Positions 25,662 through 34,839 of a DNA stretch of 64,000 nt are shown here, in pieces. Each line of letters starts with the position of its first letter. The first letter of the stretch is position 1. A program made the translations under genes and the position numbers. Under the pieces are notes generated by a model, which was not told where the DNA came from, searched no databases, and saw only the letters and a list, made by a program, of their open reading frames with translations. This DNA comes from Pseudovirgaria hyperparasitica (taxonomy: Eukaryota > Ascomycota > Dothideomycetes > Acrospermales > Acrospermaceae): positions 928,186 to 992,185 of the forward strand of contig NW_022985555.1 of the NCBI RefSeq assembly GCF_010093815.1. The letters run 5' to 3'.

Positions 25662-27943
25662 ATGGAGCCATCAGTGGAAGATCTTGCAGTCCCACAGTCA
25701 ATAATGACCACAGATTCTGTTACAACCAAGGCTGAAAAATTAGCACGGCATGACAATGGAGAAATGAACGACTACGAGGAGCCTCCAAGCAAAAGAGCCC
25801 GCACAGAAGGAACCAATGGAGCATCCGAAAATTTACAGACAGCACCTCAGCCAAGAGAGAGGGTCAGAGGGGTCGCCCCAGTGAAAGCAGAGTGAGACAC
25901 ACGTGGAAGTCGGGGACGTATATCAAATTATGCAATCGAACTAACAGTTGCAAAGATACATTCTTCCTGTCCCAGACAACAGGACGAAGCAGGAAAGGGC
26001 TGCCTTTGACGATGATGCTGCCGAAGCAGCACACCACGAGGGAGAAGGACGGCCTGGAAAGAAAGAAAAGAATAGAGGCCAAAATAAAGGCCGCGAATTT
26101 GGCAGCTCTAAGGATGCATTGCCTCTATGCGCTTCGGTTATGCTCCAGCCCGAATTTTCACCACTCGAATGCAGATTTGGTACTAAGTGCAAGTTTGAAC
26201 ACGACCTGCGAAGGTACTTGAAGGAAGGGAGGAGAGAAGACCTCAAAACGTTCAATGGGCAGTGCCCGATCTGGGATCTGAAGGGCCACTGCGAGATGGG
26301 ATGGAAGTGCAGGTTTGTTGGTTCTCACTCCACAGAAAGGGAGGTTGATGGCAAGAAGGAGCTTATACTTCTCGACGATGACAAGCGGAAAGCCCAAGCT
26401 GCGGCAGCAGGAGATGCGAATGGTCAAGTCGGGGTGGTCAACGATGTGCATCTAGACAGGAAAAAGGAGCTCAGCAGGAAGAAGTTTCCGCTACCAAAGT
26501 CGGACAAGTACGTACAATGGTTGAATGAGAAAGACAAGGCGAAACAACGCCTCGAAGGTCTCAAGAAGGATGAAATCGACGAGACAATGGACAACCGCGC
26601 ACAATTCGTCGATCCACCTCTACTCCCATCCGAGAAGCGTCGCATCTACTATGGTCCCGAAACTCCTATTCTCGCACCACTCACCACCACCGGCAACTTA
26701 CCCTTCCGCCGGCTTTGCGTCGGATTCGGCGCCCAAGTAACATGGTCCGAAATGGCCCTCGGTCTGCCCCTGATCACTGGTCACAAAGGCGAATGGGCGC
26801 TCATGAAAGCCCACGAATCTGAGACCCTTCCACCCGCATTCACTCCCGGAAGTCCTATCATACGCGGCTACTCCAACGAGAACGACCTCAAGTTCGGAGC
26901 TCAAATCGCCGCAAACAAACCCTGGCTCGCACTCAAAACTGCCGAAACGCTCAGTAACCTCTGTACCCACCTCCGGGCTATCGACCTGAACTGCGGCTGT
27001 CCCATCGATCTCGTATGCAATGACGGCGCCGGCTCTGCGCTTCTCGACCACCACGCAAAGCTCGAGAAGATGCTACGCGGCATGAACACAGTCTCCGGAC
27101 CTATTCCTATCACTGTAAAGATTCGCATGGGCACAACAAACTCTCACCCGACCGCCGAGAAACTTGTCGCGAGACTGATTAACGGTGGCGCAGAAGAATC
27201 AAGTCCTTGCGGCGTGGCAGCCATCACGCTGCATGGCCGGTCGCGCCAGCAGCGATACTCACGGGCTGCGGACTGGAGCTACATCTCATCTTGCGCAGCA
27301 CTCATCAAACGCACAAAGGAAACCCAGGACGCCCTTGTCGACACGACGGCCGAGCCCGACGCACGCTTCGCCGCGCCGGACGGCAAGGTGTACTTCATCG
27401 GCAACGGCGACGTCTACTCGCACGCCGACTACAACGCACACCTCAACGATGCAAACGTCGACAGCGTGATGGTGGCGCGTGGCGCGCTCATAAAGCCGTG
27501 GATCTTCGAGGAGATCGCGTCGGGGCAGTACCTCGACAAGTCTGCGACGGAGCGGCTCTCGTACATTGAGACATTCGTCAAGCACGGACTCGAGGCATGG
27601 GGCTCGGACGAGATGGGTGTGGGCACGACGCGGCGGTTCCTGCTGGAATGGCTGAGCTTTGCGTGCCGGTATGTACCGATCGGGCTCTTGGAGCATTTAC
27701 CGCCAAACATCCAGGACCGGCCGCCGAGGTACAGGGGCCGCAATGAGCTGGAGACACTGTTGAGCAGTGACAACTACAGAGACTGGATCAAGATCAGGTA
27801 CGTTGGACATCATCGCGGACTGGGGGGGCCGGGAGTGTGCTAATTATGGTGACAGTGAGATGTTTCTGGGCCCAGCGCATCCAAACTTCCGGTTTGAGCC
27901 GAAGCACAAGTCGAACAGCTATGAGATTGAAGCGGAGGGTTGA
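25662..27943 (+). CDS. DUS3: Dus3, tRNA-dihydrouridine(47) synthase
   Basis: Exons 25662-25891, 25956-27797 and 27856-27943 give 719 aa. The first intron ends at AAAG (25952-25955): the nearer CAG overlaps the CTAAC branch site and would break the frame, whereas the AAG acceptor gives [16 protein letters not shown], matching the family. Two CCCH-type zinc fingers follow ([11 protein letters not shown] and [22 protein letters not shown]). The FMN-dependent Dus barrel carries [20 protein letters not shown] with the active-site Cys, then [20 protein letters not shown] and GNGDVYS. The C-terminal exon encodes [20 protein letters not shown]. The enzyme reduces uridine 47 in the tRNA variable loop. 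Confidence 0.95.
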
Positions 27944-28784
27944 GTCGTGATCGAGCGAAAACACTGTGTACGATGGAAGGATATCTAGTCACGAACACGT
28001 CAAGACATGTCAACCAAGGGAGGAATACCAAACACCAAGACCAAGACCAAGCCTTGTTCCCAAAATCCACAACATCACAATCACATATAGAAGGACCAGC
28101 CAGCTCCAGGTTCCACAAATTCAAACCATTAAAACCCCTCAACTCACCCATCTCTGCTGCCCTCCCATCACTGCGCCCCCTCCTCCCTTCCACAACTCTG
28201 AAACACACACCCTCATCACGGGAACCCTCACCCCCCCTGCTCTCCCATCCCACGTCCCACCAACCAAGCATCGGCCATCGGTCATCCCAAGCCCTCTATC
28301 CCTCACTCATCCCACAGTTCTCCCAGTAGAACGGGCAGAAGGAAAGGCAGACAGGCAGGCCGTGCCCTCTATGCCATCACGTTTTATAACTAATCACAAC
28401 GTGGGCAGACACGACGAGGAGATGCAAAAAATAAATACAGCTGCACGGATGGTAAGAGTTGCGATCATGCACACACGCGGTAACGGTTCGTTTGACGGTG
28501 GTGGCTACGCTGCGAGAGAGACAGAGCAGATGGCCAGCAGGGTACTTACTTATAAGAAAGTATCGCAAACAAAGGAGACATGCAGTCGAGAGTAGCACTG
28601 ATGGATTGATTGATTGATTACTAGGTGTCAATGTTGTATACATACATACATAGCTACGTCCGTCCATTCATGGTAAATTACTACCACGAACGGGCACACA
28701 ATGCATTACACACCACACCGCACCATTACCACACCAGTAACTACCACACCAACGCCAGTACCATAGAGATAGATATAAATAGAT

Positions 28785-28804: not shown

Positions 28805-30602
28805 CAAACATCCATAATCACATAGTCCCCTTCTTTCCTTTTGCACGTTAACAACGTTTGCAACGTGCGCAACGATGCTCCAAAGTCTCACCACTATCCA
28901 TCCCCTCTTCCAACCCGGGCCATGGTACTTTTTTCTATTTTGTTTTGTTCGATGTTGTTACTGTCAAGGTTCCTCCTTCCACCACATGGAACCTAGGATG
29001 TCATTGCTCCAATCACAGCGCATGAGCGACAACGGGCGGATGAGCCGGGGATGCACGGGATGTCTGAAGAAGGAAATCCGGTGGGTGCACCGGATGTGGA
29101 ATAGCGGGGGTTTGGGGGTGGGGAGGCAGCCCTACGACCGGGACCTGTCTGTTGAGAGACTCCTCCAGACCGCTACTATCGTTTGCATCTCTACAACAAC
29201 AATAACCTCGAGGACAACTCTCAGCTTGAAGAATTTAAATCTTTGCTTGAACCTCATACGGTTATGAGCGTGCTCTGTGCACTTTTTTACCTTTATAGTT
29301 TTGCTTACTGTTCGATCCTACGCGCGCAAGAGAGACGTAGATTCACGAGGAGTGTGACAAAGGCTGCAGACGGGGCATGCAATGTGTATTGGGAGGGGAG
29401 AGACGGGATTCGATCCGATTCATGTGATATGTGCGGTGCGAAAGGTAGAATACGAGGCAGGGTGCGACATCGGGCGAGATCTGTCTTGGCCAAAACAAAG
29501 CAAGGAAAAAAAGAAGGGCGATCGATTCGGATGGTTCGAGGCGAGAGCCCAAGGCGATGCTGTTCATCGGAGAGGATTGATAGGTACCTTAGTTAGCAGG
29601 TGTTACGATCCTCTGGGTGTGAGAGTGTGGTAATGCATGTGGTGGTGGTGATGATGATGATGATGGATCCCGGCAAGTGCGTGCGTAGGTCGCCGCCGCT
29701 CGGCAGCGGACTCAGGGACTGGACAGGCAGGAGCGCTGCGGTGTCATGCTGGGAAATGTCAGTATTGATGGAATCCCAGTACTGGCCTTGTTATTATAAC
29801 GATCATCAGGATCATGATAATCATCGTAATATCAGCGTCTAAGACGAGACGACGACTGTTCACTGTGTTCAGCTGGATCTGGAGTGCAGTGTGCAGACGA
29901 CATGTGAAGGCGTTCGGCTGAAGGCATTCGGCTGCATCCGGCAGGCTCAGCCGATCCCGAACAGTTGACAGATGCTCGCCCATTTGCCGTCCCCCTGAGC
30001 TGGCGGCCTTCCTGGCGAAGATGGCTGACCCTTTTGCGGTAAACACGGCGACAAGCAGTGACGGTTGACGGGGTCTAGAGCTAGGACATGCTCGGTTGGC
30101 TAGAACAATTCGGTCGAGTAGCAGCATCTGTCACCCAGTCCGTGGTTTCAATGTATGCTAATGCTACTGTTCGTCCGGAAATAGCCTCATACTCGTCTGG
30201 TCTGGTCATGGTCTATACACCATTGGTTTAGGGAGATATGGAGGACGTGTCTCGGATGGGGCATGGTTAGTCTAGTTATGTAACGATTATCCTTCGAGAG
30301 CGCGTGCTTCGTGGACTCGTGGACGTGTGGTCTGTGTACTGTGGACTGTGTGGACTGTGGCGCTCAGACTGGTGCAATATATGATGCAGCAAGTCGAGTG
30401 AATTCAGCTGAGGCCGTGCGATGTTACTGAGTGCATACTTGTCGTGAATATGGTAGGCAGTAGAGTAGTGGGTGGTAGGCAATATCGTGGTTCTGAACAG
30501 ATTGAATAATCGCATGATACCACGCAGACGGAATGCAGGCCAAACGGACAAAGGCGCTTCTCGGTCAATTGGAAGCGGCTGCTGGACAAGTGTCCGTCTC
30601 GG

Positions 30603-30641
30603 TGACGTCCACTTCACGGTAACGTCAACGTCAACACGTCA
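30603..30641 (+). promoter_or_regulatory. Cluster of CRE-like motifs
   Basis: TGACGTC at 30603-30609 is followed by CGTCA at 30623-30627, 30629-30633 and 30637-30641. These are full and half sites of the ATF/CREB class, which in fungi are bound by AtfA-type bZIP factors downstream of Hog1. They lie about 2.3 kb upstream of the Sfp1-like start codon. Function is inferred. Confidence 0.4.
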
Positions 30642-30934
30642 ACGTCCGGACATCAGCCGTGGTTATAGCCACGATGGCAGGGAAATGATCTACGATCCGC
30701 ACCACTAACTGACATCAGGCGAGTTAATAGACGAGACGAATAATTGCATCAGCGTGATGATGATAGACGGTCTTGCTTCCCAAGTTCGCTATATCAGATG
30801 TCAGTCAGACGGGGATGGATGGGGGTGATGGGGCAGTCGGGGGAGGTCTAAGCTTGTTCCAGAAAGCCCCTAGAAGCGCTACTATGTCCAATCCTAGTGG
30901 GTCGTTAGGCAGATTCCACATCATCGTGTGTTGT

Positions 30935-30970
30935 TGTGCGTGCGTGTGTGCGTGTGTGTGCGTGCGTGCA
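30935..30970. repeat. Alternating purine-pyrimidine (TG/CG) tract
   Basis: 36 nt of strictly alternating pyrimidine and purine, mixing TG and CG steps. Such tracts can adopt Z-DNA and are often polymorphic. Confidence 0.8.
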
Positions 30971-31865
30971 CGGAGAGAGACAGACGGAGACGGCTCCTGT
31001 GCTATTCTGTAGAGATTGACCTGTTGTTCATTACTCGAGCACCCCCTTGCATGGTGTCGCACCTTCGCCGTTGTTGGCTTCACGAAGCCACGTGAGGAGA
31101 TGAGGATGAGGTTGTCAGTTGAGAACAACACACGCACACGCTAGGCCGGATCTCCGCTGCAGAACTGGGGTGCAGCCAGCAGCGATGGCACTCAACACCA
31201 TAGAGGAGGGTTAATCATGCCACTCAATAGTAGCAGTAATAGTACATAGCATATGATAATAGAACAGAAGTAATATGTAAATACTGGTAGAACGCAGTAA
31301 GACTACACATCTTTCTCTCTCCCTCTCTCTCGCGTGGTGACGGCTTAGGTCGGCATCCTGCTGGGTGGGGGATCCTAAGCTGCATCGCCGCAGTAGCCTC
31401 GACGCGAACCGGGCCTCTCAACTTTAACCCACTATAGCGACAGGCAGCGGCGGAGATATTAGGTAGAAGTGTAGGTATAGGTGGTAGATGGTATGTAGTA
31501 TGTGGTAATTAGGAGGTCAGTAAGCATGGTAGGTAGTAGTATAGTAAATGTAGCGGTGACGGAGCAGCCAACAAGCCAAAAAGCCAGCCAGCCAGCCAGC
31601 AAGGGGATGGATGCCAATGTAGTGCGCGCACTCAACTTCATGGATGGATGTGAAATGTGTCGTCAGGTATTAATGAGTAATTAGTAGCTTACAGTAGATG
31701 CTTCAACATGAGATTAGACAGTGGCAGCGAAGTGAATGTCGTCGTCAAGCCTCAATGCTCGCACGGCCAGACAGACCCCCTCATCGTTCGTCGCTGTCGT
31801 CGTCCCTTCTCCGCCATACAGCTTCTGCTTCATACTACCCATCCATCTCATCCATACCATCCATG

Positions 31866-32977
31866 CCCATACATCCCTCCCCACCTAAACCCGCCAAGTG
31901 GTTAATAACTTTGATACCCCGGACCACTTTTTACTCTTAATATTGCTGTTACATCTTCTACTTCAACAATCTTCCATTGCTACAGCTGTTCACTATTATT
32001 ACTCACGCGTTCAACAATCGAATCACTTGCTTTCTGTCGAGTCTTGTTGTCGGTAACGAGGGCGCTGCCTTACACACGCTACAAGCAAATCCTCATCATC
32101 AACATACACTCACTCTATCCCTCCCACCATTACTCACTCGCTCTCCCACCCTTTCTCTCTCTCTGCAGCTCTCACTGGATTGGAGCGCATATCGCACTGC
32201 ACCCTACATCACTAGAGTCGACCAACGAGTCAACCACCACCACCACCCGCCTGATCTTCTGTCCAATCATCACGACGAGTCTGTTACCCGAAATCGACTG
32301 CAGGCCTGGTCTCCGAATACTATAATATACCCTACTTCGCCTTCGCCTTCGCTCTCACCGCCACCGTCCATAATACTTTTCTGCCATCCTCGACGCTCTG
32401 CTGCCTCTCCAATTCTTTTGGCTTCACGTTGCAGAACGTACTGCCCGTTACCCGACGCTCGCCAAGCTACTTCCGCAACGACTATAGTACCTAGTCTAAC
32501 AACCAACGAACCATACCGCTACCGCTTACACCATCTCCATACAGTCCCCACAACGTCCACGACTGTGATCGCCCCATTAGCCGGCCTAAACATCTGTCAA
32601 CCACTCTCCGCCGCTCTCGTCCAATCCACCTTGCCTTTCCTCTCCAGATAATTCTCACCACCGCGAAACTGGATTCCTCAACCGCCTCCACGCCTCCCCT
32701 CTCCTACTCGCCCATCCAAAGTGACAGGGAACGCGAGTCGACCGCCGAGAGTACGCCAATCACAACTCCTGTCACTACCTCCCTCGATCATACATTCTTC
32801 GCTCGACAGCGTCGTGATAAAGACCTCTACTTCAGCTGGCATCGCAAGAGCGCAAACGACACAGATCCCACAGACTCGTCTGGGAGTGACTTGTTGTTCG
32901 AGGACGCAGGCGACTGCAGCTTCCCGCTGTTTCCTGAGTCTCCACCATCCGCCTCGTGCTTCCCCGCCGCCGCCACA
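31866..32977 (+). promoter_or_regulatory. ATG-free 1.1-kb leader of the Sfp1-like gene
   Basis: Reading every base of the plus strand from 31866 to 32977, I find no ATG in any frame. The complementary triplet CAT occurs about two dozen times in the same stretch. The region is pyrimidine-rich and ends in GCCGCCACA just before the ATG, a strong initiation context. This is the pattern expected of a long transcribed 5' untranslated region under selection against upstream start codons. Long open frames here (for example 31977-32651) lack an ATG. Confidence 0.6.
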
Positions 32978-34839
32978 ATGGCTACTCAGGTTTCGCCCAT
33001 TGACATCAACACCCCTCCCAGATACAATTCAGCAAGCCCTCGGAACCAAACCTCCAATCTGACCTCTGCTTTGCAACAAGCGAGCGCGCACGGCAACCAA
33101 CAAGTACAGGACTCGATACTCGGTCCAGACGAGCCACGGGTCTCCATCTCGGACCCGTCCGGTCGCAACGAGTCCATAAGTCATGCATTTGGCTCTTATT
33201 ATGGCTCAGGTGCGCGCCCAATTTCCACAAAGGATCGCCCTCGTCGTGAGAGCAACACTGGCGCTGGAAGCTACCTCGGCATGAGCTGGGGAGGTATGTC
33301 TGTGGGAAGCTGGATCAACAACGAGTAAGAGACAAAGACTTGTGTCGCAGAAGCAGGAATTAACGCTGACGCTCTCATAGTATAGCCATGCAGGGCACGT
33401 CGCCAGCCATGCAGTCACCTTCCTTCCACTCTTCTTCGTACCTGCCAAAAATGGAGGCAAATTTTATGAAAGATTTCACATGCTGCGGCCTGACACTTGA
33501 CTCACTACATGAACTCCTTCAACATTTTGAAGAGGCACATGCCCAAGCACCCGGTCAAAATTTACCTAGAACGTCAACCAGTGGTCATAGCGGCCTCCCA
33601 CAAAAGCCGGGTGCTATGCCTGCTTCGTCAAGTCGTGCAACACAAGCGGATCCTGCTGCATTCACCCAGCATGGCTTTCAGACTACTCCACGCCCACAGC
33701 CCACACAGTACAACATTGCACGGTCCCAGCGACTGGGATCAGATGGTTTCAGCAAAACGAACCTGTCTACCGTGCATGACATGGACAATGTGGAGGACAT
33801 GGAGATGGATGATGTGGGCGTGATGCCGTCAATTGATGAGCAGCACCACTTTGACATGCAGCAGCAACAACACTTCAGCAATCTTCCCCAACTGAATGTG
33901 AACCTTGCGAACTTGCAGAATCAAGGTCTTCGAAATTCGAACCCCAATACCCCTCTTGCTACAGCTTCGCCCTTCGGACTTCAACACAACCCCACTGTCT
34001 CTTCTGTCAACACGCCTACACTTAGCACAGCACCACTACAACAGCAAAGTAGGACACCAGACTCATCTACACCGGGTACTCCTGCAGAATTTGACCCAGA
34101 TTACACCATGGGCTTACCAGGAGGACTTCCGATGAATAACCAGATGAACGGTATGAATGGACTAAACGGAATGAATGGCATGAACGGAGACCTAAATTTC
34201 AACATGAATTTTGGCACTGGAATGGGGGGAGCCTTCGATGGTACAATAGACCAGCCAGCCAAGCGCCTCTTCAGCAAAAATGGATCCGGCGTCACCCAGG
34301 CACAGCTAGCGATGGCAATTCGTTCCGCACAGGGAGCTGGCGACGTGCAGCTACAGAATCAGCTTCTTGCAAAGATGCAAGGTCTGCAACAGCAGGAAGA
34401 GGTCAAGCCTTTCAGATGTCCTGTAATAGGATGTGAAAAAGCATACAAGAACCAAAATGGTTTGAAATACCACAAGACGGTCAGTTTGTACAGCCAAGCT
34501 ATGTTGTGCATATCCCGCTAACACTTCTTCCAGCATGGTCACCAAAATCAGAAACTCAAGGAGAATGATAACGGAACCTTCTCTATCGTCGATCCGGTTA
34601 CAAGCGTTCCTTACCCTGGCAGCATGGGCATGGAAAAAGAGAAGCCTTATCGCTGTGACTACTGCGGGAAGCGCTACAAGAACCTGAACGGCCTCAAGTA
34701 CCACAGACAACACTCAGCAAATTGTAACCCCGATCTCGTCAACCAACTTGGCCCGCTCAATGGCCTTCAAAATATTCAAGGTCTCAACGTCAACGTTGCT
34801 GGTGCAGGCCTAAGCGGCATCGAAGGTAGCATGTTCTGA
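32978..34839 (+). CDS. SFP1: Sfp1-like C2H2 zinc-finger transcription factor
   Basis: Exons 32978-33324, 33381-34479 and 34534-34839 give 583 aa. The ATG at 32978 is the first for 1.1 kb and has a strong context; the frame stays open about 29 codons upstream without an ATG. A conserved ANFMKDFTCCGLTLDSLHELLQHFEEAH segment (given here as FTCCGLTLDSLHELLQHFEE) resembles the first atypical zinc finger of fungal Sfp1. The middle is Asn/Gln/Met-rich. A split pair of C2H2 fingers follows (FRCPVIGCEKAYKNQNGLKYH, shortened: CPVIGCEKAYKNQNGLKYH; and YRCDYCGKRYKNLNGLKYH), with intron 2 inside the first. Yeast Sfp1 drives ribosome-biogenesis genes downstream of TORC1 and PKA; the same role is inferred. 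Confidence 0.88.

What the first reader, a model, noticed from the sequence alone, without database searches (positions are those of the whole stretch)
31866..32977. 1.1-kb stretch with no ATG on the sense strand directly before the Sfp1-like start codon
Seen directly: no ATG in any plus-strand frame for 1,112 nt, yet about 24 CAT (ATG on the other strand). At random one would expect many, even allowing for the pyrimidine-rich composition. It ends in GCCGCCACAATGG. The likely reading is a very long 5' untranslated region purged of upstream start codons, allowing scanning over an unusual distance, perhaps with length-dependent translation control of a growth regulator.
Basis: partly seen in the sequence, partly recalled or inferred. 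Interest (0 to 1): 0.72.

Follow-up and report, generated by a model that had tools for sequence, protein, structure and literature searches.

The report
Long ATG-free leader of growth gene
The stretch before this fungal regulator gene really does lack the start signal ATG over 1.1 kb, most likely because it is transcribed and scanned by ribosomes, and the part nearest the gene may itself be translated from a non-standard start codon.

Summary
No ATG lies on the + strand of 31866-32977, against 8.6 expected; none of 5,000 dinucleotide shuffles reached zero. ATG is the most depleted of 64 triplets, while CTG, TTG and ATC stay common. It is the longest of 9,971 ATG-free runs on both strands of 264 kb of this genome; the next is 613 nt. 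CAT is not enriched: 23 found, 22 expected.

The best reading is a long transcribed leader purged of upstream AUGs by ordinary selection, C-rich, G-poor and without special structure. Length-dependent control has no support.

From about 32700 on it has coding-like codon usage. The only CTG of 25 with A at -3 and G at +4 (32669) lies in frame nearby. So part of the "UTR" may be an N-terminal extension started at CUG, as published for CPC1, whose probable orthologue here looks similar. A second coding measure and real stop-free windows support this only weakly. No relatives or transcripts were available.

The parts
31800..31890 (+). pyrimidine-rich, very G-poor stretch where composition changes; inferred core promoter / 5' end region
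   Evidence: 31800-31899 has C 46, T 25, A 22, G 7, after G-richer sequence with 2, 3, 8 and 3 ATGs per 100 nt at 31400-31799; no transcript data, so inferred
31863..31865 (+). last ATG before the ATG-free run
31866..32668 (+). ATG-free leader proper (803 nt): C-rich, G-poor, no special fold
   Evidence: 0 ATG, about 6.4 expected, P0 0.0013; MFE -116.7 against shuffles -122.1, sd 5.3
32492..32494 (+). TAG, the last stop in the main frame before the start codon
32495..32977 (+). 161 codons open in the main frame, without ATG in any frame
   Evidence: chance of openness about 2% for a given frame in dinucleotide shuffles
32669..32671 (+). CTG in frame with A at -3 and G at +4: candidate non-AUG start
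   Evidence: the only one of 25 CTGs in 31866-32977 with A-3/G+4; use as a start is inferred
32669..32977 (+). possible N-terminal extension of 103 residues; coding-like from about 32714
   Evidence: second measure and real-window control weaker
32978..33324 (+). exon 1 of the Sfp1-like gene from the ATG (GCCGCCACAATGG)
   Evidence: sequence and splice borders set by eye
33381..34479 (+). exon 2, ending in the first zinc-finger-like segment
   Evidence: zf-C2H2 E 0.046, below Pfam's cut-off
34534..34839 (+). exon 3 with the second zinc-finger-like segment and the stop codon
   Evidence: zf-C2H2 E 0.0011, below cut-off; zinc-finger chains of the PDB

Best explanation
This is an unusually long, probably unspliced mRNA leader of a fungal C2H2 (Sfp1-like) regulator gene. 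Transcription probably starts near 31800-31950 (inferred). Small ribosomal subunits scan the C-rich, weakly folded RNA to the strong-context AUG at 32978. An AUG that arises on the way would divert ribosomes, so AUGs have been removed by purifying selection while near-cognate codons were left alone. Shown: the ATG-specific loss, the composition change, the absence of GTRNG splice donors in 31866-32750 and the start context. Inferred: transcription, scanning and selection. At least the distal 0.6-0.8 kb is leader; the proximal 0.25-0.3 kb may be leader or an N-terminal extension (see the first rival, which is compatible with this one).
For: 0 ATG against 8.6 expected and specific to ATG. First of 9,971 runs, next 613. 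The deficit holds for 31866-32494 alone (P0 0.002). The run ends exactly at a start codon in context GCCGCCACAATGG. No GTRNG donor in 31866-32750. No fold beyond shuffles. Known general rule: against dinucleotide shuffles uAUG observed/expected was below 1 in 473 of 478 eukaryotes, and AUG had the lowest 5'-to-3'-UTR ratio of 64 triplets (PMC7889888, passages).
Against: No transcript 5' end was seen. In A. nidulans 5' UTRs with tight start sites have median 93 nt and 95% lie within 15-434 nt, measured with a 500-bp ceiling (PMC4046813, passages). Upstream-ATG depletion before other starts of this genome is weak: observed/expected 0.82-0.96 within 300 nt of 41 starts (of 67), longest run 452, so this gene would be an outlier rather than typical. 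[quoted passage not shown]
Confidence: 0.65

Rival explanations
1. The proximal part, about 32669-32977, is coding: ribosomes start at the CUG at 32669 at low rate and make a protein 103 residues longer, with an acidic, hydrophobic segment before the usual start; others leak on to the AUG and make the short form. The upstream leader must be AUG-free for both forms.
For: 161 codons open in frame. Codon-usage frame contrast of 32723-32977 is 0.248, against 0.189 (sd 0.115) in 267 windows of long open stretches (the training set, not left out), and reached by 1 of 2,000 stop-free shuffles; the adjoining 32495-32722 scores 0.006. Best change point 32714. G is enriched at codon position 1 (0.31) as in exons 1 and 2 (0.28, 0.27). 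The only A-3/G+4 CTG of 25 lies in frame near the change. Similar architecture is published for CPC1 (PMC5487733, passages) and seen in this genome's probable orthologue L021.
Against: In real stop-free windows away from long open stretches 11 of 165 reach the value (6 of 56 C-rich ones); for 32669-32977 it is 13 of 91 and 8 of 29; these windows may hold some short exons. A 3-periodic Markov measure gives p 0.11 and 0.09 and scores 32495-32668 as high. The start 32723 was picked by eye. The codon measure is near zero in the CPC1 extension, so it is neither necessary nor well calibrated. Other near-cognates with A-3/G+4 exist out of frame (ATA 32484, ATT 31942, ATC 32017, AGG 32059). 32723-33322 has no Pfam match and 32669-32977 no PDB match. 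No relatives to test conservation.
Confidence: 0.32
2. The extension is coding but reached by splicing from an upstream exon with its own ATG, for instance through the acceptor CTCCAG at 32642-32647.
For: A pyrimidine-rich acceptor lies in phase 0 near where the coding-like part begins. With three acceptors tried, 29 mechanical combinations of upstream ATG, donor and acceptor keep the frame.
Against: The 15 of 29 combinations that were printed need introns of 1,026-2,029 nt and exons of at most 147 nt (the other 14, with exons no longer than these, were not printed); A. nidulans introns have median 59 nt with 95% at 46-228, though one of about 1.4 kb was confirmed (PMC4046813, passages). It would not explain the ATG loss inside the intron.
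Confidence: 0.06
3. The run is composition plus chance: the transcript starts close to 32978 and the distal part is promoter DNA.
For: C-rich and G-poor, which lowers ATG; leaders are mostly short in A. nidulans (PMC4046813, passages).
Against: Composition is already in the shuffles: 0 of 5,000, longest run 813 in 100 shuffled windows. The distal 629 nt alone give P0 0.002. Of the 64 triplets ATG is the lowest.
Confidence: 0.12

Closest known systems
Long 5' leaders of Candida albicans regulators (EFG1 1,139 to 1,170 nt, WOR1 2,978, UME6 3,041, CZF1 2,071; PMC6034079, passages seen)
   Same: Transcription-factor genes with kilobase leaders; the authors found one 4-residue AUG uORF in EFG1 of one strain, absent from SC5314, and deleting it made no difference.
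   Different: Those leaders are reported with lengths, and effects on translation are reported: up for EFG1, down for UME6 and WOR1. Here neither the 5' end nor any effect is known.
CPC1 of Pezizomycotina with non-AUG-started N-terminal extensions (PMC5487733, passages seen)
   Same: Transcription factor whose frame stays open far upstream of the AUG without an in-frame AUG, with near-cognate codons in good context.
   Different: CPC1 leaders carry two AUG uORFs; the open extension is found in 100 of 100 homologues analysed, is under purifying selection, and has in vitro and ribosome-profiling support in N. crassa. Here there is no AUG in any frame and no conservation or profiling data.
Non-AUG-started peroxisomal form of 6-phosphogluconate dehydrogenase in Ustilago maydis (PMC7214817, passages seen)
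   Same: A fungal gene whose 5' UTR encodes an in-frame extension without an AUG.
   Different: There the start (AGG AUU) and a targeting signal were shown by experiment; here nothing was tested at the bench, and the targeting signal there begins 39 nt upstream of the AUG, against up to 309 nt here.
General depletion of AUG in eukaryotic 5' UTRs (PMC7889888, passages seen)
   Same: AUG specifically depleted against dinucleotide shuffles.
   Different: There a statistical tendency over genomes; here total absence over 1.1 kb before one gene.

Membership tests
Long AUG-depleted fungal mRNA leader | AUG-specific depletion beyond composition | tested here: met
Long AUG-depleted fungal mRNA leader | Transcript 5' end far upstream | not testable with these tools
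   no cDNA, CAGE or RNA-seq at hand
Long AUG-depleted fungal mRNA leader | Not removed by splicing | tested here: inconclusive
   no GTRNG donor in 31866-32750, but no cDNA
CPC1-type non-AUG N-terminal extension | Main frame open far upstream without in-frame AUG | tested here: met
   161 codons
CPC1-type non-AUG N-terminal extension | Near-cognate codon in good context, in frame | tested here: met
   CTG 32669, A-3/G+4
CPC1-type non-AUG N-terminal extension | Coding constraint on the extension | tested here: inconclusive
   codon usage for; second measure and real windows weak
CPC1-type non-AUG N-terminal extension | Conservation among relatives | not testable with these tools
   no relative found in viral or genome contigs; the genome search says this genome has no relatives held
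CPC1-type non-AUG N-terminal extension | Two AUG uORFs in the leader | tested here: not met
   no ATG in 31866-32977; so it could work like the CPC1 extension but is not the same regulatory system
Sfp1-like C2H2 regulator | Two C-terminal C2H2 fingers | tested here: inconclusive

The most novel reading that the evidence does not exclude
A fungal Sfp1-like growth regulator makes two proteins from one mRNA: a long form started at a CUG that adds a 103-residue, partly acidic and hydrophobic (activation-domain-like, by eye) segment, and a short form from the AUG. Their ratio would then shift with start-codon stringency, linking the translation machinery to a regulator of ribosome production, and the 0.8-kb AUG-free leader would deliver scanning ribosomes to both starts.
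Probability: 0.22. Interest if true: 0.6.

Novelty: new member of a known kind. Interest (0 to 1): 0.38.

Why it matters
It is a clear single-gene case that looks like selection against upstream AUGs over about a kilobase, in a genome sample where such depletion is otherwise weak (41 starts). If the extension is real, another fungal transcription factor besides CPC1 would use a non-AUG start, and gene models that begin at the first AUG would miss its N-terminus. Both can be settled with standard cDNA and ribosome-profiling data.

Tried and rejected
Antisense meaning of the CATs: rejected, 23 against 22 expected. RNA element: no Rfam match in 31700-33000, no fold beyond shuffles, and inside the leader only a 15-nt two-copy repeat and parts of weak long-range pairs. 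Bacterial promoter and terminator scan: not meant for a fungus; 1 promoter-like site against 1.4 expected. Translated ORF 31977-32651 in another frame: no consistent codon signal (0.105, then -0.044). Relatives: none in viral contigs (4 pattern matches, none confirmed) or genome contigs (21, none confirmed). Paralogues: the two searches of the own genome found only this gene, best candidates only. Literature: two searches with Sfp1 among the terms and leader, uORF or non-AUG terms listed 15 of 18 and 10 of 21 papers; by title and abstract start none is about an Sfp1 leader or extension. A third on Sfp1 in filamentous fungi listed 20 of 74; of these I opened only PMC4046813.

Full report
Observation. 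The ATG-free run 31866-32977 is exactly as described. Against dinucleotide counts 8.6 ATGs are expected; in 5,000 shuffles the minimum was 2. ATG has the lowest z of 64 triplets, -3.56, while CTG (25), TTG (12), ATC (26), ATA (18) and ATT (11) stay common. Over the window plus 200 kb of the same contig, both strands, it is the longest of 9,971 runs; the next is 613 nt. In 100 window copies shuffled in blocks of 250 the longest run was 813. CAT is at its expected number (23 against 22.0), so nothing points to the other strand.

Gene. The ATG at 32978 (GCCGCCACAATGG) starts a three-exon gene of 583 residues by my borders (33324/33381 and 34479/34534). It ends in two C2H2-type segments; Pfam matches lie below the curated cut-offs, and the PDB matches listed are ordinary zinc fingers (60 of 219 shown; 39). 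The genome has 35.0 Mb in 59 contigs. That it is a filamentous ascomycete is inferred from gene structure and from its probable cpc-1 orthologue; no call named the organism.

Leader. The + strand changes at about 31800 from G-richer sequence with more ATGs (8 in 31600-31699) to C-rich, G-poor sequence. The deficit of ATG is significant without the proximal part: P0 0.002 for 31866-32494. No GTRNG donor occurs in 31866-32750; a looser pattern gives GTCGGT, GTAACG and GTCTGT. The RNA of 31866-32668 folds slightly less well than shuffles (18 of 20 fold at least as well) and 31700-33000 matches no Rfam family. This suits an open, scanned leader and gives no sign of a structural switch. Selection against AUG in 5' UTRs is general (PMC7889888, passages), and fungal regulators with leaders of 1-3 kb are in print (PMC6034079, passages). 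In this genome, however, depletion before other starts is weak: 41 of 67 ORF starts were used (26 were dropped for lack of a purine at -3 or of 1.3 kb upstream, and this gene was left out before that); observed/expected was 0.82-0.96 within 300 nt and the longest run was 452 nt. Some of these starts are probably internal exons, which would dilute the effect.

The main frame is open from 32495 to the ATG, 161 codons; the chance of this in shuffles is about 2% for a given frame. Among 68 first-ATG starts of ORFs of 200 aa or more (one of them probably exon 2 of this gene) the longest such stretch is 156 codons; all eight longest carry ATGs in other frames, 1 to 11 each. Codon usage trained on 48 long open stretches shows a frame contrast of 0.248 for 32723-32977, against 0.189 (sd 0.115) in 267 windows of long open stretches, which were not left out of training, and 0.006 for 32495-32722; 1 of 2,000 stop-free shuffles reaches it. 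The start 32723 was picked by eye, so that p is optimistic. With start 32669 the contrast is 0.199. The best change point is 32714. The only A-3/G+4 CTG of 25 in the region lies in frame at 32669. Two weaker ones with G at -3, CTG 32306 and TTG 32180, are in the same frame but meet stops at 32492 and 32213; four other near-cognates with A-3/G+4 (ATA, ATT, ATC, AGG) are out of frame.

Results against the extension. In real stop-free windows away from long open stretches, 11 of 165 reach 0.248, and 6 of 56 C-rich ones; for 32669-32977, 13 of 91 and 8 of 29. A 3-periodic Markov measure gives 0.136 and 0.128, inside the coding range (61 left-out windows, mean 0.194, sd 0.065) and above the leader windows tried (maximum 0.092), but stop-free shuffles reach it with p 0.11 and 0.09, and 32495-32668 scores the same, 0.137. 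32723-33322 has no Pfam match and 32669-32977 no PDB match.

Control. Ivanov et al. (PMC5487733, passages) report that in 100 of 100 Pezizomycotina homologues the CPC1 frame extends far upstream without an in-frame stop, that no in-frame AUG could start it, and that in N. crassa four near-cognate codons start translation in vitro and footprints in vivo fit. The probable orthologue here (L021; one bZIP match, 63% identity, E 2.9e-7) agrees: first in-frame ATG at 877, 223 open codons upstream, and in that stretch ATGs at 347, 353 and 570 only, none in frame. I did not measure its uORFs or near-cognate codons. My codon measure is near zero there (-0.04 to 0.07 in the windows starting at 208-748) and 0.14 to 0.40 in windows starting at 868 or later; the Markov measure gives 0.03 and 0.06 in the extension and 0.16 in the main frame. 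So such architecture exists in this genome, and my measures can miss a real extension; they do not prove this one.

Verdict. A real, extreme, AUG-purged leader, confidence 0.65; a CUG-started extension on top of it, 0.32 and compatible with it. Splicing from an upstream ATG is unlikely (introns of 1,026-2,029 nt in the 15 of 29 combinations printed). Length-dependent control is unsupported.

Noticed in passing
L021 1-3168 (gene on the reverse strand; G000 C2:1354349-1357516): The probable cpc-1 orthologue of this genome has 223 in-frame codons open upstream of its first in-frame ATG, with three out-of-frame ATGs there (positions on the reverse complement).
   Followed up: partly
L004 7474-7929 (- strand): A 452-nt ATG-free run (5.2 expected) directly before a 1,099-aa ORF: perhaps a second, shorter purged leader.
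   Followed up: no
window 30227-31760: A 1,085-nt stretch 30227-31312 without TTT on the + strand, then low-complexity, TAG- and ATG-rich sequence up to the leader; GT repeats at 30926-30972.
   Followed up: no
window 26453-27986: 1,533 nt without TAG on the + strand; it overlaps the ORF 25948-27843, which may be the reason.
   Followed up: no
L001-L020 joined and reversed, index 87557 and 82929: Two ORF starts with 156 and 142 coding-like in-frame codons before the first in-frame ATG; probably unresolved exons, possibly other non-AUG starts.
   Followed up: no
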